Shown here: positions 1 to 11,927 of the stretch, piece by piece
Layout of the letters: each line of letters opens with the position of its first letter
How positions within the stretch are numbered: position 1 is the stretch's first letter
Assembly: GCF_900635155.1 (NCBI RefSeq)
Contig: NZ_LR134002.1
Location: forward strand, 1,054,001 to 1,118,000
Source of the DNA: Streptococcus sanguinis
Lineage (GTDB): Bacteria > Bacillota > Bacilli > Lactobacillales > Streptococcaceae
DNA: 64,000 nt
Direction: 5' to 3'
Translations under genes and position numbers: made by a program
Notes under the pieces: generated by a model
Database searches by the model: none
What the model saw: the letters and a program-made list of their open reading frames with translations, nothing else
Told to the model about the DNA's origin: nothing

Positions 1-1723
1 AACCACTAGTAGCCTCGGGAGGGGGCGGAAACCCACTTGTAAAAGTCAATAAGATTATCCATCTTCTGCGTTAGAACCCCCAGTCTACTCGAGAGGGTAC
101 GGGAACGTATTTGTTGGTATTTTGTTTTCAAATGGTACTACGGGTAAGACCCCCCATTCACCTTGAAAAGGGGCGGAAACATATTCTCGAATTTTATATA
201 GGCTTGTATCATACTGCGTAAGAATCCCTAGTAACCTCGAGAGGGTACGGAAACCTAACATTGAAAAACTACTAATCATTCGCATACTTCTCTAAGAATC
301 CCTATTCACCCCGAGAGGGGGCGGAAACTGCCCTTCAAGTGCTTTAGGGTTGTGTAAGTCTGCGTAAGACCCCCCAATCACCTCGCGAGGGTACGGAGAC
401 CTTGTCGTGGTCGTCCAAGTGCCGAGTGTGGTCTTATAAGTCTCCATTTATCTTGAGAGATTACGGAAACTTATCTACGTATTGGTCATTAGCTTCAGCA
501 CCACTTGTAAGAACCCCCAATCACCCCGCGAGGGTACGGCAACGGATTGTTTGAATACACTTGTGTATCAAACGGATAGGTAAAAAGCCCCAGTCACCTC
601 GAGAGGGGACGGAAACAATTCAATTTGAAGCTCTAACTCATACCATTTTTTGTAAGAAACCCCAGTGTCACCTCGGGAGGGTACGGAAACAGAACGGCAT
701 AAGCTGCAAGACAACGGAAACCAATAAGTAAGAACCCCCATTCAGCTCGCGAGGGTACGGAAACATTTCTTCTAATACTCTTCTTGTAGTTTTGCGACTT
801 GGTAAGACCCCCCATTCACCTTCGAGAGAGGACGGAAACTTACTCTTGGTTGTCTTCATAGCTCTTCTTTTCTTAAGTAAGACCCCCCATTCGCCTCGCG
901 AGGGTACGGAAACCGAAATTTCTTTCAACCTTTCAATAAACGGGATTCTGTAAGAACCTCCATTCACCTCGGGAGGGTACGGAAACATAACGTCGTCTTC
1001 CTCATCCTTAGAATTACTCTTTGGTAATAACCCCCATTCACCTCGAGAGGGTACGGAAACTTGGCTCCGTCGATTGCTTGGTCTACGGTCTTAAAGTAAG
1101 AAACCCCAGTTACCTCGGTAGGGGACGGAAACCTACTAAGTTTCTCCTCTTCAAAAACTTTCCATTCCGTAATAACCCCCAGTCACCTCGAGAGGGTACG
1201 GAAACCGGCCAACTACTGCCGTCCCTGTTACCGAGACGCTGGGTAAGAACCCTCATTCACCCCGAGAGGGTACGGAAACGCGCAAATGTGTATGCATAGA
1301 CTTGAAGTCGAATACAGTAAGACACCCCAGTGACCTCGGGAGGAGACAAAAACTGTCATTTGGTGACCTCCTTCCTTGTGCTTGGCTTGGTAATACCCCC
1401 TAATCACCTCGAGAGGGTACGGAAACTTGCTAACTTCTCCTGTCTTTGGCAATTCGTTCGTGTAAGAACCCCCATTCACCTCTGAAGGGGGCGGAAACAA
1501 TAGATTTCGAGGATTGTCATTCTCACCACTCAACTGGTAAGACCCCCCAGTCTCCTCGAGAGGGGACGGAAACATATTGCCTTCCTGATCTTCAATCTTC
1601 ACTTCAATAAAGTAAGAAACCTCAGTCACCTCGGGAGGGGACGGAAACATACTCAGCATAGTATTCCAAATAAAACGTGAGTTCTGTAAGACACCCCAGT
1701 CACCTCGCGAGGGGACTGCAAAC
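1..1723 (+). CRISPR. Type III-A CRISPR array, 24 repeats visible, left end outside window
   Basis: The first unit (1-32) is cut by the window edge. Full repeats start at 70, 144, 218, 292, 364, 434, 507, 580, 652, 728, 802, 877, 950, 1024, 1096, 1169, 1243, 1317, 1390, 1462, 1537, 1612 and 1686. Repeats are 37 nt, except 39 nt at 652 and 38 nt at 802 and 1686; spacers are 33-38 nt. The repeat begins GTAAGAACCCCC, has a hairpin CCTC-GA-GAGG and ends ACGGAAAC, the 8-nt crRNA handle known from S. thermophilus type III-A, so the crRNA strand is +. No two repeats are identical. The most altered visible handle (CTGCAAAC, 1716-1723) marks the leader-distal end, so the leader should lie left of the window. 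Short open frames across the array on both strands are artefacts. Confidence 0.97.
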
Positions 1724-1780: not shown

Positions 1781-1809
1781 TTGACATCGCTTTCAAGATT
1801 TGATATAAT
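1781..1809 (+). promoter_or_regulatory. Sigma-70-type promoter of the cas6-csm operon
   Basis: TTGACA at 1781-1786 and TATAAT at 1804-1809 are separated by exactly 17 bp, a perfect vegetative promoter. It lies between the last CRISPR repeat and cas6 and points into the csm genes, so the effector operon can be expressed independently of the array. The rest of 1724-1921 holds the hairpin described next and the cas6 ribosome binding site. Confidence 0.85.
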
Positions 1810-1841
1810 AACAATCGTAAAAACAGTACTGATAATAACTA

Positions 1842-1900
1842 AAAAAGGGCGCCCTAGATTCGGTGAAAAATACTTTCACCGTTTTTAGGCGCTTTTTCTT
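1842..1900 (+). terminator. Terminator-like long hairpin in the 5' leader of the csm operon
   Basis: After the promoter the transcript can fold GCGCC (1849-1853) with GGCGC (1888-1892), and inside it CGGTGAAA (1861-1868) with TTTCACCG (1874-1881). A flanking A-run (1841-1846) faces a T-run (1893-1897). This has the form of an intrinsic terminator, located between the csm promoter and cas6. It could attenuate the operon, stop array read-through, or make a short leader RNA; the sequence does not decide which. Confidence 0.6.
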
Positions 1901-1921: not shown

Positions 1922-2656
1922 GTGAAGAAAATACGATTGCATCTTTCAAAGGTATCTTTGAAGGATGATGACTTAGTCTGTAAACTGCAGGGCTTTCTCA
2001 TGGAGAAGCTTTCGGATGACTTTGCCTCCTTCCTCCATCAGCAAGAGACCAATCCCTACTCGATGAATCTTCGTTCGGAGCGGGAGGAGTCTATTTGGAC
2101 GGTAAACTTACTTTCAGAAGAAGCGGAGCAGCAGATATTGCCCCAGTTATTGAGTCTTGAAACGATAAAATTAGAGACTTATTCTGAGGAGATTCTGGTG
2201 AAGAATATCGAGATCCAGTCTCTTTCGTCCCAGTCCTTGCTGGAGGTTTTTCAGGGAGATGAGGCTTCGCACTTGATAAGCCTGAACTTCTATACTCCGA
2301 CGACCTTTAAACGTCAGGGGCAGTTTGTCCTTTTTCCAGATACACGTCTAATCTTTCAGAGCCTCATGCAGAAGTACAGCCGGCTGGTGGAAGGCAAAGC
2401 AGAGATAGAGGAGGAAACGCTGGAGTTTTTAGCAGAGCATAGTCAAATCACCAGCTATCGTCTAAAGAGTCATTATTTTCCGATTCATGGACGAAAATAC
2501 CCCGCCTTTGAGGGCAGGGTAACTATTCGGGTTCAGGGAGCATCTACTTTAAAGGCCTATGCCCAGATGCTTCTGAGATTCGGGGAATATTCTGGAGTCG
2601 GAGCTAAATGCAGCTTAGGAATGGGAGGGATGAGAATTGAAGAAAGAAAAACTTGA
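1922..2656 (+). CDS. cas6: CRISPR-associated endoribonuclease Cas6
   Basis: Cas6 cuts the array transcript within each repeat and leaves the 8-nt handle on the crRNA. The 244-aa protein has the usual length. It matches the streptococcal type III-A Cas6 pattern: an N-terminal ferredoxin-like region with LHQQETNPY near residue 38, FKRQGQFVLFP in the middle, and a C-terminal glycine-rich loop GVGAKCSLGMGG. The start is GTG at 1922, eight bases after AGAAAGGA (1906-1913); the ATGs at 1914 and 1920 are out of frame. It is the first gene of the operon and overlaps csm1 by 20 bases. Because the array repeats are so diverse, this enzyme must tolerate many sequence variants, which fits recognition mainly through the hairpin. 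Confidence 0.93.
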   Translation: MKKIRLHLSKVSLKDDDLVCKLQGFLMEKLSDDFASFLHQQETNPYSMNLRSEREESIWTVNLLSEEAEQQILPQLLSLETIKLETYSEEILVKNIEIQSLSSQSLLEVFQGDEASHLISLNFYTPTTFKRQGQFVLFPDTRLIFQSLMQKYSRLVEGKAEIEEETLEFLAEHSQITSYRLKSHYFPIHGRKYPAFEGRVTIRVQGASTLKAYAQMLLRFGEYSGVGAKCSLGMGGMRIEERKT

Positions 2657-4934
2657 ATTAATCCATGCGGCCTTGTTTCACAATCTTGGCCGAGTTGTTA
2701 GTCGCTCGCACGGTCGGCCAGATGATATAGATTTGGGAAAAGAATGGTTAAAAGAGCAACTGCCCCATCTTAATTTTGGTGGGGATAACAGAACAGAAAA
2801 AATAATCACTTTGGCCAGTCATATTGCCAGTGGCTCATTGGATGAAAACAAAGTTTCAAAAGAGAAGCTTTTCAAACCGCTGGCTGATATATTCAACGCC
2901 TTCAAAAAGAAAGAGGAGGCTCGTTATCAGAAGTTTGAAGTCTTGACAGATGAGAGTGAACTCAATATTGCCGTCAACGAAACAGTTGATATTAGTCAGG
3001 ACTGCTATAAGGAACTGCTGAATATTTTGAATGAAAAACTGCAACAACTTCCCTTAGAGGAAGAAAGCTTGCCTTCCTTTTTCAATCTTTGGAGGAGCTT
3101 GTTTTCGAAAGTTCCTCTACTTCCTGGAGACAAGGAGCTGGGAGATCTCTCTCTGGCAGAGCATAGTCGATTAACGGTTGCTTTTGCTACTTCGATTTTT
3201 GATTATCTGGAAAGTCAAGACCAATATACTCTACTAGATGATGAATCCAAATTTTATAGAGAATCAGCCTTCTTGCTAGCCAGTTTTGATCTTTCTGGTA
3301 TTCAGGACTTTATCTACAATATCGCCAGCAAAGGGGCTGCTAAGCAACTCAAGGCTCGCAGTCTTTATCTGGAATTTATGAGTGAAAATATTGTGGATAG
3401 TCTCTTGGAGAAGTTGGCGCTATCACGCGCCAATGCCCTTTATGTCGGTGGAGGCCATGCCTATTTCGTTCTACCCAATACAGAAGCTACAGTGGCGGTC
3501 TTGGAGCAGTTTGAAATAGAATTTAACAGTTTCCTCCTGAAACATTTTCAGACGGGTCTCTATGTTGCTTTTGGTTGGGCACCATTTGCCGCAGAGCAGA
3601 TTATGAAATACCGTTATGGCTCGGTTGCTAGTTATCTACAACACTATCGTGAGATCTACCAAGAGACTAGTCGGATGATTTCTGAAAAGAAAATCTCTCG
3701 CTACGATGCAACTACCCTGCGAGAGCTCAATAAGGGTGGTAAGCAATCTGAACGAGAGTGTGAAATTTGCCATGCAGTTGGGGATATAAAAGAACTGCGG
3801 ATAGGTGGCGAGGATGTACAAAATCTTTGTCCTATTTGTCGTGAGCTTAGAGGATTTGCTGCTATAATTCATACTTTTAACGACACTGAAAATCCTGAAA
3901 GGGAAGACTATTATTATTTTCAGATTGTAGAGGGAGAAGAAGGACTGCCGATTGGCCCTGGAGCTGTATTGTTGGCTGTGGGTGAAGATGATATTCCCAC
4001 TTCAGGTCGTTTATATGTGAAAAATAAATTTTCTACGAACTATGCTGCTATTCATGTCTATATCGGAGACCGTCAGGCAGCGAATATCGAAGATTATGCT
4101 GGTCTGTCTCAAAAAGAAATCGAAGGAAATGAGGGTGAGACTAGGGGAATTAAGCGTCTGGCTGTTTTGCGTTTGGATGTAGACAATCTAGGTGCGGCCT
4201 TTATGGCTGGATTTTCTGAACAAGCAGCTGGAAGTTATAATACTCTTGCTCGCTCTGCTGTATTTTCTCAGCAAATGAGTCTTTTCTTTAAGTTTCATAT
4301 TAATCATTTTGCAGAAGGTAAGAATTTAACGATTATCTATGCAGGTGGTGATGATGTGTTTGCGATTGGCAGCTGGCAGGATGTTATAGATTTTGCGGTT
4401 GATATTAGGCAGAAATTTATTGCTTTTACAAATGGGAAATTGACCTTATCAGCAGGTATCGGGCTTTATCCAGATAAAACCCCGATTCATCTGATGGCTT
4501 TGGATGCTGGACATCTTGAAGAGGCCGCTAAGTCCAATGGCAAAGATAGCATTTCTCTTTTCAATGAACGGTACACTTTCACGTTTGATGACTTTATTGA
4601 TGAGATTTACAAAGGAAAATTAAAGGATATTCGGAGATATTTCTCTGGGCAGAAGGAGCGGGGCATCAATTTTCTCTATCGCTTGGTCGAACTTTTGCAA
4701 CTTAATGATAAAACGATGTATAAGGGATATGGGCCGGAAGATGATAGAAGGATGAATGTTGCCCGCTTGGCCTATCTATTGGCGCGAATGGAAGATGAAG
4801 CTAACAAAGAGGAGAAGGAGCATTTCAGAGAATTTAAAAATGCTTTTTGGGGTTGGTACAAGAGGAGCAGTAAAACACAGAGAGAAGCTGAGTTCGCTCT
4901 CATCTACTATCTATATGAGATTAGAAAGGTATAA
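2637..4934 (+). CDS. csm1: Type III-A large subunit Cas10/Csm1, HD site degenerate, GGDD cyclase intact
   Basis: Cas10 senses target RNA and makes cyclic oligoadenylates with its Palm domain; in most family members an N-terminal HD domain also cuts ssDNA. The start is TTG at 2637 behind GGGAGGGA (2623-2630), inside the end of cas6. The family motif LLHDIGK reads LFHNLGR here, so the HD pair is H15-N16 (codons CAC AAT). The later ADNIASG motif reads ASHIASG, and the intervening segment that normally carries further histidines is short. The Palm2 motif YAGGDDVFA is intact at about 569-573. A zinc-ribbon CEIC...CPIC pair lies near 375-405. Length, 765 aa, is normal. Predicted to be a signalling subunit without DNase activity. 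Confidence 0.95.
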   Translation: MKKEKLELIHAALFHNLGRVVSRSHGRPDDIDLGKEWLKEQLPHLNFGGDNRTEKIITLASHIASGSLDENKVSKEKLFKPLADIFNAFKKKEEARYQKFEVLTDESELNIAVNETVDISQDCYKELLNILNEKLQQLPLEEESLPSFFNLWRSLFSKVPLLPGDKELGDLSLAEHSRLTVAFATSIFDYLESQDQYTLLDDESKFYRESAFLLASFDLSGIQDFIYNIASKGAAKQLKARSLYLEFMSENIVDSLLEKLALSRANALYVGGGHAYFVLPNTEATVAVLEQFEIEFNSFLLKHFQTGLYVAFGWAPFAAEQIMKYRYGSVASYLQHYREIYQETSRMISEKKISRYDATTLRELNKGGKQSERECEICHAVGDIKELRIGGEDVQNLCPICRELRGFAAIIHTFNDTENPEREDYYYFQIVEGEEGLPIGPGAVLLAVGEDDIPTSGRLYVKNKFSTNYAAIHVYIGDRQAANIEDYAGLSQKEIEGNEGETRGIKRLAVLRLDVDNLGAAFMAGFSEQAAGSYNTLARSAVFSQQMSLFFKFHINHFAEGKNLTIIYAGGDDVFAIGSWQDVIDFAVDIRQKFIAFTNGKLTLSAGIGLYPDKTPIHLMALDAGHLEEAAKSNGKDSISLFNERYTFTFDDFIDEIYKGKLKDIRRYFSGQKERGINFLYRLVELLQLNDKTMYKGYGPEDDRRMNVARLAYLLARMEDEANKEEKEHFREFKNAFWGWYKRSSKTQREAEFALIYYLYEIRKV

Positions 4935-4937
4935 AAG

Positions 4938-5453
4938 ATGGCACCGTACGAAAAAAATAAGAACAACCGAAATAACGGTAAAAAGAATTTTCAAAACAAT
5001 CGTAATCAAGATAGATATGGTAATCAAAGTAATGAACAAAAATTTTTTAAGCTTAAGTCGCCTATTTTGACGGATGATTATGTTGATAAAGCTGACCTGG
5101 TCATTCATAGCTTGAAAAATTCAGGGACATACACAGAAGGGCCAAACAAAGGGAAGATAAAATTCAAATTAACCAGTACACAAATTCGTAATTTAGCAGC
5201 CTTGACCAGCAATCTTTTTGACGAAAGTAAAACAAAAAATGATATTGAGGAATTAAGAGAAAAAATTTCCTATTTGAGGATTCAGTTTGTCTACCAATCC
5301 GGAAGAGAACCAGCTGTAGAAGATTTTGTTAAAAAAGCAGGTTTATTAGAAGCGTTGACAGAAATTCAAGATATACCTAGTTTACAGCGCTTCTGTCGAT
5401 ATATGGAAGCTTTGATTGCATATTTTAAATTCAATGGAGGAAGAGATCAATGA
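4938..5453 (+). CDS. csm2: Type III-A small subunit Csm2 with basic N-terminal extension
   Basis: Csm2 forms the inner helical filament along the crRNA-target duplex. The conserved part starts about residue 37 (LTDDYVDKADLVI) and includes KLTSTQIRNL and RFCRYMEALIAYFKF near the C-terminus. The protein is 171 aa, longer than typical Csm2 (about 120-140). The excess is an Asn/Lys/Arg-rich low-complexity N-terminus (KNKNNRNNGKKNFQNN), probably disordered and able to contact RNA. The start ATG lies three bases after the csm1 stop, and the gene overlaps csm3 by ATGA. Confidence 0.9.
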   Translation: MAPYEKNKNNRNNGKKNFQNNRNQDRYGNQSNEQKFFKLKSPILTDDYVDKADLVIHSLKNSGTYTEGPNKGKIKFKLTSTQIRNLAALTSNLFDESKTKNDIEELREKISYLRIQFVYQSGREPAVEDFVKKAGLLEALTEIQDIPSLQRFCRYMEALIAYFKFNGGRDQ

Positions 5454-6160
5454 CCTATTCAAAAGTAAAAATTTCAGGAATTATTGAGCTGAAAAGCGGA
5501 CTTCATATTGGTACCAGTAATGCCTTCGCAGCTATTGGTGCTACCAATAATCCTATTATCAAAGATCCCCTTACGAATCTTCCCTATATTCCTGGATCTA
5601 CTTTAAAAGGAAAAATGCGCAGCTTACTTTATCGGACAGACTATAATAGCAACACAACAGAGAAGCTAAGTAAAGATAGTTTGGAAATTAGCCGTCTTTT
5701 CGGAAATTCAGAAACTTATAAAATTGGCCGCTTGGTTTTTCGAGATGCCTTTCTAAACAACAAAGAAGAGCTAGGTAAAAGAGTATCTACTTACACAGAA
5801 GTTAAGTTTGAAAATACAATCAATCGCATTACAGCTGAAGCAACTCCTCGACAAGTTGAGCGAGCTATTCGTGAAAGTGAATTTGCTTTTGAGATTATCT
5901 ATTCTATTCAGGAGAAAGAACTCACTGAGGTCGAAAAGGATATGGAAATTCTCAAAGCTGGTTTTGAATTGTTAGAATGGGATTACTTAGGCGGTTCTGG
6001 CAGTCGCGGCTATGGTAAAGTGTGTTTTAAAAACTTTGAGGTTAGGACTGTCTTTGGTGAATTTGATGAGGATAGGATTAAAAAAGCCCTGAAACCATTT
6101 ACTAATGATGAGTCCGATGGTGGAGGAAGTATAGAGATCCCAGATTCAGAAATTAAGTAA
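5450..6160 (+). CDS. csm3: Type III-A backbone subunit Csm3 with catalytic Asp replaced by Asn33
   Basis: Csm3 polymerises along the crRNA as a RAMP backbone and in characterised systems cuts target RNA every 6 nt, using an Asp in the motif AIDSP (D33 in S. thermophilus, D32 in S. epidermidis). Here the region aligns without gaps: SGLHIGTSNAFAAIGATNNP, with Asn at residue 33 (codon AAT near 5546). The rest of the fold is intact: KDPLTNLPYIPGSTLKGKMR, EVKFENTINRITAEATPRQ and the glycine loop GGSGSRGYGK near 180. The 236-aa length is normal, so assembly should be unaffected while target RNA cleavage should be lost. It starts within the ATGA overlap with csm2. Confidence 0.94.
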   Translation: MTYSKVKISGIIELKSGLHIGTSNAFAAIGATNNPIIKDPLTNLPYIPGSTLKGKMRSLLYRTDYNSNTTEKLSKDSLEISRLFGNSETYKIGRLVFRDAFLNNKEELGKRVSTYTEVKFENTINRITAEATPRQVERAIRESEFAFEIIYSIQEKELTEVEKDMEILKAGFELLEWDYLGGSGSRGYGKVCFKNFEVRTVFGEFDEDRIKKALKPFTNDESDGGGSIEIPDSEIK

Positions 6161-6171
6161 GGAGGTCTGCT

Positions 6172-7080
6172 ATGGCCTATCAACTCTATAAATTAGATTT
6201 TAAGTCTGCTCATTTTGGAGAAGGTCATTTGGATGATTCGGTCATGACTTTCACGGCAGCTCGTCTTTACTCTGCCTTAGTGCTTGAAGCTATTAAGGCG
6301 GGGGTCTTAGATGAGTTTGAGAATTTATCTCGACAGGATGAGTTTGTATTGACTGATGCTTTCCCCTATATGGAAACCCCTTATCTCCCTAAGCCAATCG
6401 GCTATCCATTGTTGGATAAAGTCAACCTAAATGAAGATATTATCAAACAGCGGGAAGAAGCAAAAAAAGCAAAAAAATTAGCTTTTATTAAGTTGGGGGA
6501 TTTTGACTGCTTTCTATCTGGAAATAGTATCGTTAGTGAATCTCTGGCAACAAAATCAGTTAACACAAAAAACCAGCCCTTCCAAGACGGGAATCTTTAT
6601 CAAGTTGCTTCAGTTCACTTTGACAAAAGCAGTCTGTATTTCATCGCCAATCAATCTGATTTGTTGGATCGTTTATTGGAAAGTCTTCAGTTTAGTGGTA
6701 TCGGAGGCAAGCGCAGCAGTGGTTACGGTGGTTTTACTCTGGATAAAACAGTTCAACAACCGCTTGATTTTTTTAAAAGATTAACTGTTCAATATACAGG
6801 GAAAGTAATGGCTTTGACGACTTCTTTGCCGGTAGATAGTGAATTGAAACTCGCAATGAATGAGGGAAGATACTTACTGAAAAAGTCAAGTGGCTTTGCA
6901 TTTAGTGAGGAGACGGAGTCTAATTATCGCAAGCAGAATCTTTACACTTTTAAGGCAGGTTCAACCTTTTCCAAAACTTATAATGGGCAAATCTGTGATG
7001 TCAAGCCAAGTGATGAGTTTCCTCATTCAGTCTGGCATTATACTAAACCCTTATTCTATATATTGGAGGAATCCAAATGA
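6172..7080 (+). CDS. csm4: Type III-A crRNA-handle-binding subunit Csm4
   Basis: Csm4 is the RAMP protein that caps the 5' end of the complex and joins the crRNA handle to Cas10. The 302-aa protein begins YQLYKLDFKSAHFGEG, a typical Csm4 start. It carries a lysine/alanine-rich insert (REEAKKAKKLAF) near 90-105 and the RAMP glycine-rich loop GIGGKRSSGYGGF near 180-190. It follows csm3 by 11 bases with AAGGAGG as ribosome binding site and overlaps csm5 by ATGA. No disrupting change is visible. Confidence 0.92.
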   Translation: MAYQLYKLDFKSAHFGEGHLDDSVMTFTAARLYSALVLEAIKAGVLDEFENLSRQDEFVLTDAFPYMETPYLPKPIGYPLLDKVNLNEDIIKQREEAKKAKKLAFIKLGDFDCFLSGNSIVSESLATKSVNTKNQPFQDGNLYQVASVHFDKSSLYFIANQSDLLDRLLESLQFSGIGGKRSSGYGGFTLDKTVQQPLDFFKRLTVQYTGKVMALTTSLPVDSELKLAMNEGRYLLKKSSGFAFSEETESNYRKQNLYTFKAGSTFSKTYNGQICDVKPSDEFPHSVWHYTKPLFYILEESK

Positions 7081-8216
7081 AGACAAAATATAGGAAATTC
7101 AAGCTGACTCTGTGGACTTTGGGACCAGTGCATATCGGGAGTGGTCAGCTTCATACTGCTCGTGAGTATATTCTTGAAGGGGATGAATATTATTTTCCAG
7201 ATATGACTCTGCTTTATGACGAACTTATCAAACAAGGTATTGATGAAAAATTCCAAAAGTTCTTAATTGATTCGGATAATAAAACCAATCGAATAAGCGA
7301 TTTTCTGGCTGAGCATGGCATAACAAAACGTGATTTTGGGGGCTATAGACTTAAAGCAACAGGGCTTGAAAATCCTAAAGAAGAGAATGCAACTCGAAAT
7401 CAGGAAACGACAAATCTAGGAGAAATAAATGGCGTTCATCAATTTATGAGAGATTGTTACGGTAACCCTTATATCCCTGGCAGCTCTCTTAAAGGTGCTA
7501 TTCGCACTATTTTGATGAATACGCATTGGCACTCAATGAATTTTAAGAAGAAAAATAAAAAAGGCAAAATCATTGAAAATAAGAAAGCGATTCCTTGGGG
7601 ACCAACTAGACGACAGAGACATGAAAAAATAAAACCTTTTGATGATATTTTTAATGAAATTCGTGTCTCAGACAGTCAGCCTCTGACAAATGATGATTTA
7701 ATTCTTGTTCAAAAGTGGGATTTCACTCCAGATAAAGATACAAAACCACATTCACTAAGTATCTATCGTGAAGCTCTGAGACCTGGAACCAAGCTGGAAT
7801 TTGAAATTATTGCCGCTTTAGGTTTCGAAGGTGGAAGAGCTGGTGAGCTCATTTCTTCTCTTGGGGAATATGCACAAAAATTTTACTTTGGAATGACAGA
7901 AGATGAAGGCTATGAAGGATATAAAGATTTCTTTCTAAAAAAATTTCCTAATCATTTAATTCAAAACAATCTATCCTATCCCCTCTATCTAGGTGGTGGT
8001 AGCGGCGCTTGGACCAAAACAGTATTTAGGCAAGCGGATGGCGAAGTTCAAAAACGACATAAGAAAATGTCTGAACGAGGAGCTCTAAAATTGACAAAGG
8101 CGCCCCAGCAAGTTATAAAAACTACTAAAGGTGAAAAAAGTTTGATAAATAATGCTCAAAATTTCTATGAAATGGGCAAAACCTGTTTTACGATTACGGA
8201 GGTAGGTACAAGATGA
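7077..8216 (+). CDS. csm5: Type III-A RAMP subunit Csm5
   Basis: Csm5 caps the 3' end of the crRNP and takes part in crRNA maturation with host nucleases. The 379-aa protein opens FKLTLWTLGPVHIGSGQ and contains the RAMP segment YGNPYIPGSSLKGAIRT near 125-143. A basic linker (KKKNKKGKIIENKKA) near 160 and the late glycine segment LGGGSGAW near 305 are also visible. It overlaps csm4 and csm6 by four bases each, which implies translational coupling. No truncation or frameshift is seen. Confidence 0.92.
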   Translation: MKTKYRKFKLTLWTLGPVHIGSGQLHTAREYILEGDEYYFPDMTLLYDELIKQGIDEKFQKFLIDSDNKTNRISDFLAEHGITKRDFGGYRLKATGLENPKEENATRNQETTNLGEINGVHQFMRDCYGNPYIPGSSLKGAIRTILMNTHWHSMNFKKKNKKGKIIENKKAIPWGPTRRQRHEKIKPFDDIFNEIRVSDSQPLTNDDLILVQKWDFTPDKDTKPHSLSIYREALRPGTKLEFEIIAALGFEGGRAGELISSLGEYAQKFYFGMTEDEGYEGYKDFFLKKFPNHLIQNNLSYPLYLGGGSGAWTKTVFRQADGEVQKRHKKMSERGALKLTKAPQQVIKTTKGEKSLINNAQNFYEMGKTCFTITEVGTR

Positions 8217-9529
8217 AGACATTAATCACATTTATTAGTCAGTATGATCCGATTGGTGTAAAATTTAAACATCCTACAAAAAAAGATGAAACGGGTCGAG
8301 AAAAAACGGACAATTTTCGAAGAGCCTTGTCTATAGGGGACATTCATACATATGAGCATGATGGATACCAACAGGAAATTTCAGATGGTCCTGCACTCGT
8401 AATTATTAAAGATGAATTACCTGACAAGCTTATTGTTATATATAGTGATGAGATGAAGGTAAAGCAGGAAAACTTTGAAAGGACTGTTAAAACTGTTTAT
8501 AGAAAAAAAGCAGTCCAAATCCCTGTGATTCAAAATGAGTATGTAACAGAGGGTGTTCATGAATTTGAAGCAATGTATAAATTTGTAGAAAAAATCCTTG
8601 ATAGAGAAGATATGTCCAACGGAGATTATATTTTAAATATTACAAGTGGTACTGCTCAATGCCAGGCTGCCATGTACTTTATCAATTTTATCAAGGATTA
8701 TCATACAAGACTTGCTCGGGTAGATTCTCCAAATGGGAAGAAAACAAATAGGTCTAATCAGGGCGCTCCTTATTTTGAAGAAGTTGTTTTAGATGATTTA
8801 TTGAAAAAACAAACAGCAGAAAAGGAAGATGAGCGTAAACCAGAAATTGAAACAGGCGAAAAGTTAAAAAACAATTTATTGCAACGGACCTATAAAGATT
8901 TCATTTTGAAGTATGAATACAAAGCAGCATTAGATATCTTAAAGGGAAATCCCGATATCATTTCTGATAAACAAGATCAAGAAAAATCAAAAAATATATT
9001 AGAAAGCATGATTAGTGTTTTTCAAAAACAGAGAGTTCTTGAAGAGATTGTAGCTGATGATAATTTGCAATATGGTGACACAGATGAGTTTCAAAAAGTG
9101 TTAAATTATTATCTGATGATTGATATTCTAAACCGTAGAGGTCAAGTGACTGATGTGCTAGTCAAGGCAAAATCCTTTGCGGAGTTTATCTTAAAATCTG
9201 TGATTGAAAGAAGACATTCAGATTTAGAACTAATTAAAAAGAATAAGAGAATTAATATTTTTGATATGATTAAAATTCTCAACCATTATCATGAATATTC
9301 TAAATTTGAAACTCCAATTTCAAAAATTATAGCTGTAAATAAGCAAAGGAATGACGTTGCTCACGGACTGGTTGTGATTTCAGTGGAGCAAGAGGAATTG
9401 GACGAATTGGTGAAGGGGTTGAAAGAGCTCGTCATTGCTGCATATTTTGATATGAATGCCTCTTTATATCAGAAATATTTTGATTATTATGATATAAAGA
9501 ATCAAGATTTAATCAGCTGTCTTAAATAG
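8213..9529 (+). CDS. csm6: Cyclic-oligoadenylate-activated RNase Csm6 (CARF-HEPN)
   Basis: Csm6 is a stand-alone dimeric RNase that binds the cyclic oligoadenylate made by Cas10 through a CARF domain and cuts RNA through a HEPN domain. The 438-aa protein has the CARF ligand-loop signature NITSGTAQ at residues 142-149. The HEPN motif R-X4-H is intact as RNDVAH (R379 to H384) near the C-terminus. With the Csm3 and HD sites apparently dead, this is the only nuclease of the interference step that looks active in the locus. It is the last gene of the operon and is followed by a terminator. Confidence 0.92.
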   Translation: MKTLITFISQYDPIGVKFKHPTKKDETGREKTDNFRRALSIGDIHTYEHDGYQQEISDGPALVIIKDELPDKLIVIYSDEMKVKQENFERTVKTVYRKKAVQIPVIQNEYVTEGVHEFEAMYKFVEKILDREDMSNGDYILNITSGTAQCQAAMYFINFIKDYHTRLARVDSPNGKKTNRSNQGAPYFEEVVLDDLLKKQTAEKEDERKPEIETGEKLKNNLLQRTYKDFILKYEYKAALDILKGNPDIISDKQDQEKSKNILESMISVFQKQRVLEEIVADDNLQYGDTDEFQKVLNYYLMIDILNRRGQVTDVLVKAKSFAEFILKSVIERRHSDLELIKKNKRINIFDMIKILNHYHEYSKFETPISKIIAVNKQRNDVAHGLVVISVEQEELDELVKGLKELVIAAYFDMNASLYQKYFDYYDIKNQDLISCLK

Positions 9530-11793: not shown

Positions 11794-11805
11794 GTTTACA
11801 ATTTA

Positions 11806-11906
11806 ACCTTTAATCAAGTCCAGTGAGGCTGCAAGGTGGGAAAAGCGGTATAAGAGGCAGTTAGCTGCCTTGTTTTTTGCGAAACCTTGCTGCGGCGAGG
11901 TTTTTT
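11806..11906 (+). promoter_or_regulatory. PyrR-dependent attenuator before pyrK
   Basis: The PyrR binding-loop motif AGTCCAGTGAGGCT is at 11817-11830, enclosed by ACCTT and AAGGT arms that form the anti-antiterminator. GCAAGGT (11831-11837) can instead pair with ACCTTGC (11884-11890), giving an antiterminator. The terminator is AACCTTGC (11883-11890) with GCGAGGTT (11895-11902) and a T-run. When UMP is high, PyrR should hold the first stem and cause termination. A further hairpin AGGCAG-TTAG-CTGCCT (11855-11870) followed by a T-run lies inside the antiterminator loop. Confidence 0.9.
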
Positions 11907-11927
11907 CTTGTAGAAAGTGAGGTTGTC

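What the first reader, a model, noticed from the sequence alone, without database searches (positions are those of the whole stretch)
1922..9529. A signalling-only type III-A CRISPR system
Both effector sites that destroy the target (Csm3 Asp, Cas10 HD) are substituted, but the GGDD cyclase motif (570-573) and the Csm6 CARF and HEPN motifs (R379...H384) are intact, as are all seven genes and their overlaps. Random decay would be expected to leave stops or frameshifts; here only catalytic positions have changed. The locus looks converted to a sensor that answers phage transcripts by activating Csm6, an abortive or dormancy response. I know of dead-HD and dead-backbone type III variants separately, but I am not aware of this double loss in a streptococcal III-A locus.
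Basis: partly seen in the sequence, partly recalled or inferred. Interest (0 to 1): 0.92.

Follow-up and report, generated by a model that had tools for sequence, protein, structure and literature searches.

The report
Nuclease-dead, signalling-only type III-A CRISPR
An oral streptococcus carries a CRISPR immune complex whose two cutting sites look naturally switched off while its alarm-signal parts are kept, and the same form is conserved across related species, so it probably senses invaders and raises an alarm rather than cutting them.

Summary
Csm3 has Asn at residue 33 (Asp in active Csm3) and Cas10 has His-Asn instead of His-Asp at 15-16; GGDD and the Csm6 HEPN R379...H384 are intact, and all seven genes are open. 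N33 and HN occur together in 6 of 6 members of one clade (S. sanguinis-like, S. sinensis, S. cristatus), under purifying selection (dN/dS 0.10-0.30). The cas10-csm6 module moved between species after they split. Spacers are mostly antisense to the frame they match (11 of 15), and repeats keep a Cas6-type hairpin. This argues against simple decay. Best reading: an RNA sensor whose only output is cyclic oligoadenylate acting on Csm6 (inferred, not assayed). Corrections: HD loss is common in streptococcal III-A (15 of 17 loci), only the Csm3 loss is special; changes are not confined to catalytic positions; the CARF is not intact (Gln10-Tyr11 plus an insertion where Enterococcus Csm6 binds and degrades cA6). 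Not excluded: a one-way alarm that lost all three off-switches. Unexplained: repeats are hypervariable while identical spacers are shared between arrays.

The parts
1..1722 (+). Trailer part of the CRISPR array (whole array is G000:C1:1053199-1055722, 35 repeats of 37 nt): 5 identical leader-end repeats, then 3 identical ones, then 27 that all differ
1781..1809 (+). Promoter-like site TTGACA-17-TATAAT (12 of 12) ahead of cas6
   Evidence: aligned in seven loci
1847..1900 (+). Terminator-like hairpin with T-run between promoter and cas6; possible attenuator
1922..2656 (+). cas6
2637..4934 (+). cas10/csm1, TTG start; HD motif is HN, GGDD intact
2682..2684 (+). Cas10 residue 16, Asn (AAT) where S. 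thermophilus has Asp
4344..4355 (+). Cas10 GGDD (570-573), intact
   Evidence: 120 of 120
4938..5453 (+). csm2 (171 aa; 117-131 aa in the 11 other loci)
5450..6160 (+). csm3/cas7
5546..5548 (+). Csm3 residue 33, Asn (AAT) in place of the catalytic Asp
6172..7080 (+). csm4
7077..8216 (+). csm5
8213..9529 (+). csm6 (CARF-HEPN), the only csm6 found at the locus
8240..8245 (+). Csm6 Gln10-Tyr11, in place of [Asn/Thr/Asp]10-[Thr/Ser/Arg]11 of other streptococcal Csm6s
8252..8383 (+). Clade-specific stretch in the CARF ligand segment (window residues 14-57; shorter in G019)
9347..9364 (+). Csm6 HEPN motif R379-N-D-V-A-H384, intact

Best explanation
A natural signalling-only type III-A system. Cas6 cuts the array transcript at hairpin repeats. 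The Csm complex carries the crRNA and binds complementary transcripts of invading elements without cutting them (Csm3 N33) and without cutting DNA (Cas10 HN). Binding switches on the intact Palm (GGDD) domain, which makes cyclic oligoadenylate; this binds Csm6 and its HEPN domains cut RNA, giving growth arrest or loss of the invader. The target RNA is not cut, so the signal should last longer per target than in a canonical complex. Shown: residues, conservation, selection on the proteins, module transfer, antisense spacers, hairpin constraint. Inferred: loss of both cleavages, cOA synthesis, Csm6 activation, physiological outcome.
For: N33 and HN together in 6 of 6 clade loci; GGDD and HEPN in 17 of 17 loci. 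In the 120 listed relatives of each, GGDD 120 of 120 Cas10 and R379/H384 120 of 120 Csm6; of the 34 Cas10s with at least 80% identity, 31 have HN, 1 YN, 2 lack the site. dN/dS in the clade: cas6 .10, cas10 .15, csm2 .27, csm3 .17, csm4 .14, csm5 .23, csm6 .30; Palm2 .08. G000 against G198, G020, G024: csm3 dS .16-.19 and cas10 .34-.35, while cas6 is 1.4-1.8 and pyrDb 1.9-2.4 or saturated, so the module crossed species. N33 is one clade in the csm3 and cas10 trees. Of 15 spacers with protospacers outside arrays (three N33 arrays), 11 are antisense to the longest frame at every place found, 2 ambiguous, 2 sense or without a frame. Repeats keep a GNRA loop in 157 of 169 and the stem. cas1 and cas2 present. 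A Csm complex with dead Csm3 makes cA6 for longer (passages of PMC7101355).
Against: No assay. D to N is not proof of zero activity. Frame breaks in csm4 (G192) and csm5 (G019), 2 of 6 loci. csm6 evolves fastest (.30; HEPN half .41), and its CARF ligand site is changed, so cA6 may not be the activator. csm2, csm5 and csm6 ratios are higher than in the D33 group (.27/.14.23/.16.30/.20). No phage match for the in-window array part or for 3 tested spacers in viral contigs. Two spacers are not antisense. The antisense spacers could partly predate arrival of this module. Dead Csm3 had a minimal effect on outcome in staphylococci, so the change could be near-neutral.
Confidence: 0.72

Rival explanations
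1. Decay: the effector lost its nucleases because it no longer matters, and the locus is on its way out.
For: Frame breaks in csm4 (G192) and csm5 (G019); shrunken HD region; csm6 ratio .30; many diverged repeats.
Against: Purifying selection in all seven genes; identical residues in 6 of 6 loci across species; module spread between species; 5 identical leader-end repeats and cas1/cas2; antisense spacers; hairpin constraint.
Confidence: 0.1
2. Guide-directed RNA binder: the non-cutting complex blocks translation or marks transcripts, and cOA signalling is secondary.
For: Csm3 conserved except for the catalytic Asp and short variable patches among five clade members; spacers antisense to coding frames.
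Against: GGDD 120 of 120 and HEPN R/H 120 of 120 would not be needed; Palm2 is among the most constrained parts of Cas10 (.08).
Confidence: 0.09
3. Not really dead: Asn33 or neighbouring residues retain slow RNA cleavage, giving a slow timer rather than none.
For: The loop around residue 33 is otherwise close to that of active Csm3s.
Against: Asp33 is the residue implicated in target cleavage, and D33A is used to abolish it (passages of PMC6461802).
Confidence: 0.09

Closest known systems
Canonical streptococcal III-A Csm (S. thermophilus; here 11 other Streptococcus loci)
   Same: Same gene order cas6-cas10-csm2-csm3-csm4-csm5-csm6; GGDD; HEPN Csm6; repeat hairpin and 5' tag type
   Different: D33 kept in 11 of 11; 10 of 11 show two csm6 hits (G064 one; the second of G132 only a partial frame); no Gln-Tyr and no insertion in the Csm6 CARF
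HD-less signalling systems (e.g. Vibrio metoecus Cmr with NucC, PMC8682760, title and start of abstract seen in listings; survey PMC11229360, passages seen)
   Same: Cas10 without HD, acts through cOA
   Different: The survey text has no occurrence of 'cas7' or 'csm3', so the Cas7 Asp was not scored there in the main text; here Csm3 is dead as well
[quoted passage not shown]
   Same: Catalytic Asp of Cas7 not conserved; in type VII the repeats often carry multiple substitutions
   Different: There another nuclease is thought to do the cutting (HD in III-G/H, Cas14 in VII), and the cyclase is inactive in III-G/H; here the cyclase is the part kept
Laboratory dCsm3 and HD mutants of S. epidermidis and S. 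thermophilus
   Same: Same residues; longer cA6 production (PMC7101355, passages) or minimal effect on defence outcome (PMC11708336, passages)
   Different: Engineered there; here natural, together and fixed in a clade

Membership tests
Type III-A CRISPR-Cas | Cas10/Csm1 and Csm2-Csm5 of subtype III-A | tested here: met
   NCBIfam models over cut-off for all
Type III-A CRISPR-Cas | Adaptation genes and CRISPR array | tested here: met
   cas1, cas2, 35-repeat array
Type III-A CRISPR-Cas | Csm3 catalytic Asp (target RNA cleavage) | tested here: not met
   N33; activity itself not assayed. Filed as a variant of III-A on gene content, not as a canonical RNA-cutting Csm
Type III-A CRISPR-Cas | crRNA complementary to transcripts | tested here: met
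   11 of 15 spacers with protospacers antisense to the longest frame, 2 ambiguous, 2 not
Signalling (cOA) type III system | Active-site GGDD in Cas10 Palm | tested here: met
   17 of 17 loci, 120 of 120
Signalling (cOA) type III system | CARF effector with intact effector site | tested here: met
   Csm6 HEPN R379/H384
Signalling (cOA) type III system | cOA made on target binding | not testable with these tools
   needs biochemistry
cA6-type Csm6 with ring-nuclease CARF (EiCsm6) | Asn10 and Thr11 (cA6 sensing and degradation) | tested here: not met
   Gln10, Tyr11 in 6 of 6 loci and in 116 of 116 database relatives holding the site; roles from PMC7101355. EiCsm6's own N-terminus was not aligned, so the register rests on equal numbering of streptococcal Csm6s
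cA6-type Csm6 with ring-nuclease CARF (EiCsm6) | Thr114 and Gln116 in the SGT-x-Q motif | tested here: met
   SGTAQ or SGTPQ in 120 of 120

The most novel reading that the evidence does not exclude
A one-way alarm. This mobile cas10-csm6 module has lost every known means of ending the response: target-RNA cleavage by Csm3, invader-DNA removal by Cas10 HD, and cA6 degradation by the Csm6 CARF (Tyr at the Thr11 position, with a new insertion in the ligand segment). No STIV_B116-like (PF08960) ring nuclease was found in the genome (other ring-nuclease families not searched). Detection would commit the cell to arrest, and the module spreads between species as a suicide-type sensor. Equally new would be the alternative that the rebuilt CARF site reads a different messenger or needs more of it.
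Probability: 0.28. Interest if true: 0.82.

Novelty: new variant of a known kind. Interest (0 to 1): 0.62.

Why it matters
How complexes with a dead Csm3 shut off is stated to be elusive (PMC9368842 discussion). Here nature has run the dead-Csm3 experiment and kept it across species. The swap of effector modules behind a 98%-identical cas6 (G000 against G194) gives a natural dead-Csm3 / D33 pair in closely related lineages (pyrDb dS .40).

Tried and rejected
Considered and rejected: assembly or annotation artefact (same residues in 6 separate loci and in database proteins); whole-operon relaxation; loss of adaptation genes as the window alone might suggest (cas1 and cas2 lie upstream); the D in 'LDVDD' becoming N in Cas10 as a cyclase defect (N there is common in Cas10 by recall; not tested; it marks 34 of 120); an adenine-type hypermutator for the repeats (alleles include G/T and T/A changes; not pursued further). 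Phage searches with spacers gave nothing. Rfam gave no family for the leader hairpin. Literature: ten searches in the open-licence library showed me no report of a natural III-A locus with dead Csm3 plus intact signalling, nor of hypervariable III-A repeats in streptococci; I saw listings and passages, not whole papers (one discussion section in full), and most subscription papers are not in that library.

One further search hit (G192 spacer region, G060) fell under the script's identity filter.

Full report
CHECK. The window starts inside a complete III-A locus. Seven genes, cas6 to csm6 (1922-9529), are open and hit their NCBIfam models above cut-off. Csm3 residue 33 is Asn and Cas10 residues 15-16 are His-Asn; the S. 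thermophilus chains in 9no4 and 6nud have Asp at both, and chains with Asn exist in the 6ifk set. GGDD (570-573) and Csm6 R379/H384 are intact. Directly upstream, outside the window, are cas1, cas2 and the rest of a 35-repeat array; cas1 has one match in the genome.

DISTRIBUTION. Of 284 genus genomes searched with this Csm3, 25 matched; 17 encode a real Csm3 (58-100% identity) and 8 gave only weak partial matches. In those 17 loci N33 occurs in 6 (G000, G192, G198, G020, G024, G019) and D33 in 11. Cas10 reads HN in the same 6; elsewhere HD in 2, HA in 7, YN in 1, CS in 1, so HD is kept in only 2 of 17. GGDD is 17 of 17. Near-identical Csm6s are named S. sanguinis, and one of them lies on a contig of G192's exact length, so the window is most likely S. 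sanguinis or a close relative (inferred). Of the 120 listed database Csm3s (7797 matched) 113 have D, 2 N (one cluster stands for 427 sequences), 1 A and 4 lack the site.

SELECTION AND ORIGIN. NG86 dN/dS in the clade is .10 (cas6).15 (cas10).27 (csm2).17 (csm3).14 (csm4).23 (csm5).30 (csm6); the D33 group gives .07.11.14.13.14.16.20 (csm4 pairs with G192 and csm5 pairs with G019 dropped as frame-broken; pairs outside dS .02-1.5 dropped, which leaves 8 of 15 clade pairs for cas6). Cas10 Palm2 is at .08, the first 60 residues at .12, residues 61-215 at about .27. Between G000 and G198/G020/G024, csm3 dS is .16-.19 and cas10 .34-.35, while cas6 is 1.4-1.8 and the neighbouring housekeeping gene pyrDb 1.9-2.4 or saturated (G019 pyrDb was read on the wrong strand there and is not used). 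So the cas10-csm6 module crossed species after they split. G194 has cas6 98% identical to the window but a Cas10 only about 52% identical, with D33 in Csm3: the module is exchanged behind a resident cas6. Trees make N33 a single clade in csm3 (100/99) and cas10 (100/100); in cas10 the HD-less G194 and G239 group with it (100/99), so HD loss looks older than the Csm3 change (order inferred; both rows have long branches).

THE ARRAY WORKS AS A MEMORY. Spacers of three N33 loci were compared with the 284 genomes (only 2 candidates per genome were scored, so misses are likely). Fifteen spacers have protospacers outside arrays that pass my filter: 5 of 34 in G000, 3 of 37 in G192, 7 of 43 in G020. 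Eleven are antisense to the longest frame at every place found, two ambiguous (G000 s8, G020 s23), two sense or without a frame (G192 s25, G020 s24) (earlier partial counts). For the 12 spacers the 8-nt tag matches the target flank at 0-5 of 8 places. Several hit elements in G187 and G193 whose genes include ArdC_N/Toprim/DUF3991 (G187) and RepA_N (G193), so conjugative or plasmid-like (inferred). For the window's own array four are antisense and one ambiguous. Against this: no phage match for the in-window part of the array and none for three spacers in viral contigs.

CSM6 IS REBUILT. In all 6 clade Csm6s residues 10-11 are Gln-Tyr; in the 20 other streptococcal Csm6s that hold the site (of 21), residue 11 is T (16), S (3) or R (1). 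Database relatives: SQYD in 116 of 116 that hold the site. In Enterococcus italicus Csm6, Asn10 serves cA6 sensing and Thr11 cA6 degradation; T11A with a dead-Csm3 complex gave strong growth inhibition, but T11A with an HD-dead complex gave only a weak arrest, which the authors put down to weaker cA6 binding (passages of PMC7101355). The clade also has an insertion just after this motif, in the segment that contacts the ligand there. So the 'intact CARF' is only half right: SGT-x-Q is kept, the N-terminal ligand segment is not. Either cA6 decay is lost, or binding is weaker, or the ligand differs. PADLOC already holds a model for this Csm6 subfamily (PDLC01811, 893 bits).

MECHANISM. Best reading: a sensor complex that binds target RNA without cutting RNA or DNA and acts only through cOA and Csm6 (0.72). 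Precedents: HD-less systems with cyclase (passages), viable dCsm3 mutants (discussion of PMC9368842), and minimal effect of dCsm3 on outcome in staphylococci (passages of PMC11708336). A warning from the same literature is that a dead Cmr4 causes autoimmunity in Saccharolobus (abstract and discussion), so the clade must tolerate or limit it; a changed Csm6 threshold is one possible way (speculation).

NOVELTY. HD loss is common; Cas7 Asp loss is known in III-G, III-H and type VII, where another nuclease is thought to act. The combination here, III-A with dead Csm3, dead HD, live cyclase and live Csm6, was not found in ten searches of the open library (listed in Tried and rejected). It is a new variant of a known kind.

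UNEXPLAINED. Repeats are hypervariable in most of the 17 arrays, with D33 as well as N33: in G000 29 distinct among 35, in G020 42 among 44, but only 2 among 9 in G019 and 4 among 10 in G239. In the six arrays G000, G192, G194, G198, G020 and G024 (last repeat of each left out), 190 repeats give 169 distinct; these keep GNRA in 157 and standard pairs at 20-27 (169), 21-26 (168) and 19-28 (164), while 18-29 pairs in only 86 and the loop base (23) and base 29 are near 50% minor allele. An alternative register pairs almost as well. Across the 17 arrays 36 spacer pairs matched at 100% over at least 31 nt; of the 30 usable (6 dropped for register shifts), flanking repeats differ on average at 4.5 and 3.6 of 37 places against 5.9 for random repeat pairs, and 11 differ within 15 nt on both sides. 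Depletion of differences next to the spacer points to recombination as part of the cause. Neutral divergence between strains sharing spacers is itself high (pyrDb dS .25 for G000/G192.28-.42 among G198, G020, G024), so the repeat differences alone do not demand a raised mutation rate; the identity of the spacers is what stands out. In G000 some deep spacers match targets at 97-100% (s14, s16) and others at 89% (s30, s32). Independent acquisition, spacer exchange and repeat-biased mutation are not separated.

Noticed in passing
L003:1199-3722 (window 1-1722 and upstream) and the arrays of G192, G198, G020, G024, G194, G122, G065, G132, G107, G102, G213, G100, G077: Repeats are hypervariable at fixed positions (loop base 23, bases 7-9, 13-17, 29 or 30) while the hairpin, GNRA loop and 3' tag are mostly kept; identical spacers in different arrays are often flanked by different repeats; cause unknown.
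   Followed up: partly
window 1781-1900: A perfect sigma-70-type promoter is followed by a terminator-like hairpin before cas6; both can be seen in G000, G192, G194, G198, G020, G024 and G019 despite sequence divergence, suggesting attenuation control of the cas operon.
   Followed up: partly
L048 (G194): cas6 98% identical to the window but Cas10 only about 52% identical, with D33, YN and two csm6 genes: effector module swap behind the same cas6 and array type.
   Followed up: yes
L156 (G020:C1:805000-808500) and G020 array spacer 36: Spacer 36 of G020 matches G020's own chromosome (97% over 35 nt, antisense to a 124-codon frame): a self-match tolerated in a locus of the N33 clade.
   Followed up: partly
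L035 csm4 (G192) and L039 csm5 (G019): Each is split by a frame break; sequencing error or real loss cannot be told apart here.
   Followed up: no
P0111: A Csm3 of 59% identity has Ala at the position of the catalytic Asp: a possible second, independent natural dead Csm3.
   Followed up: no
window 11803-11911: PyrR-type RNA element just below its Rfam threshold (51.9 against 54 bits) ahead of the pyr genes.
   Followed up: no
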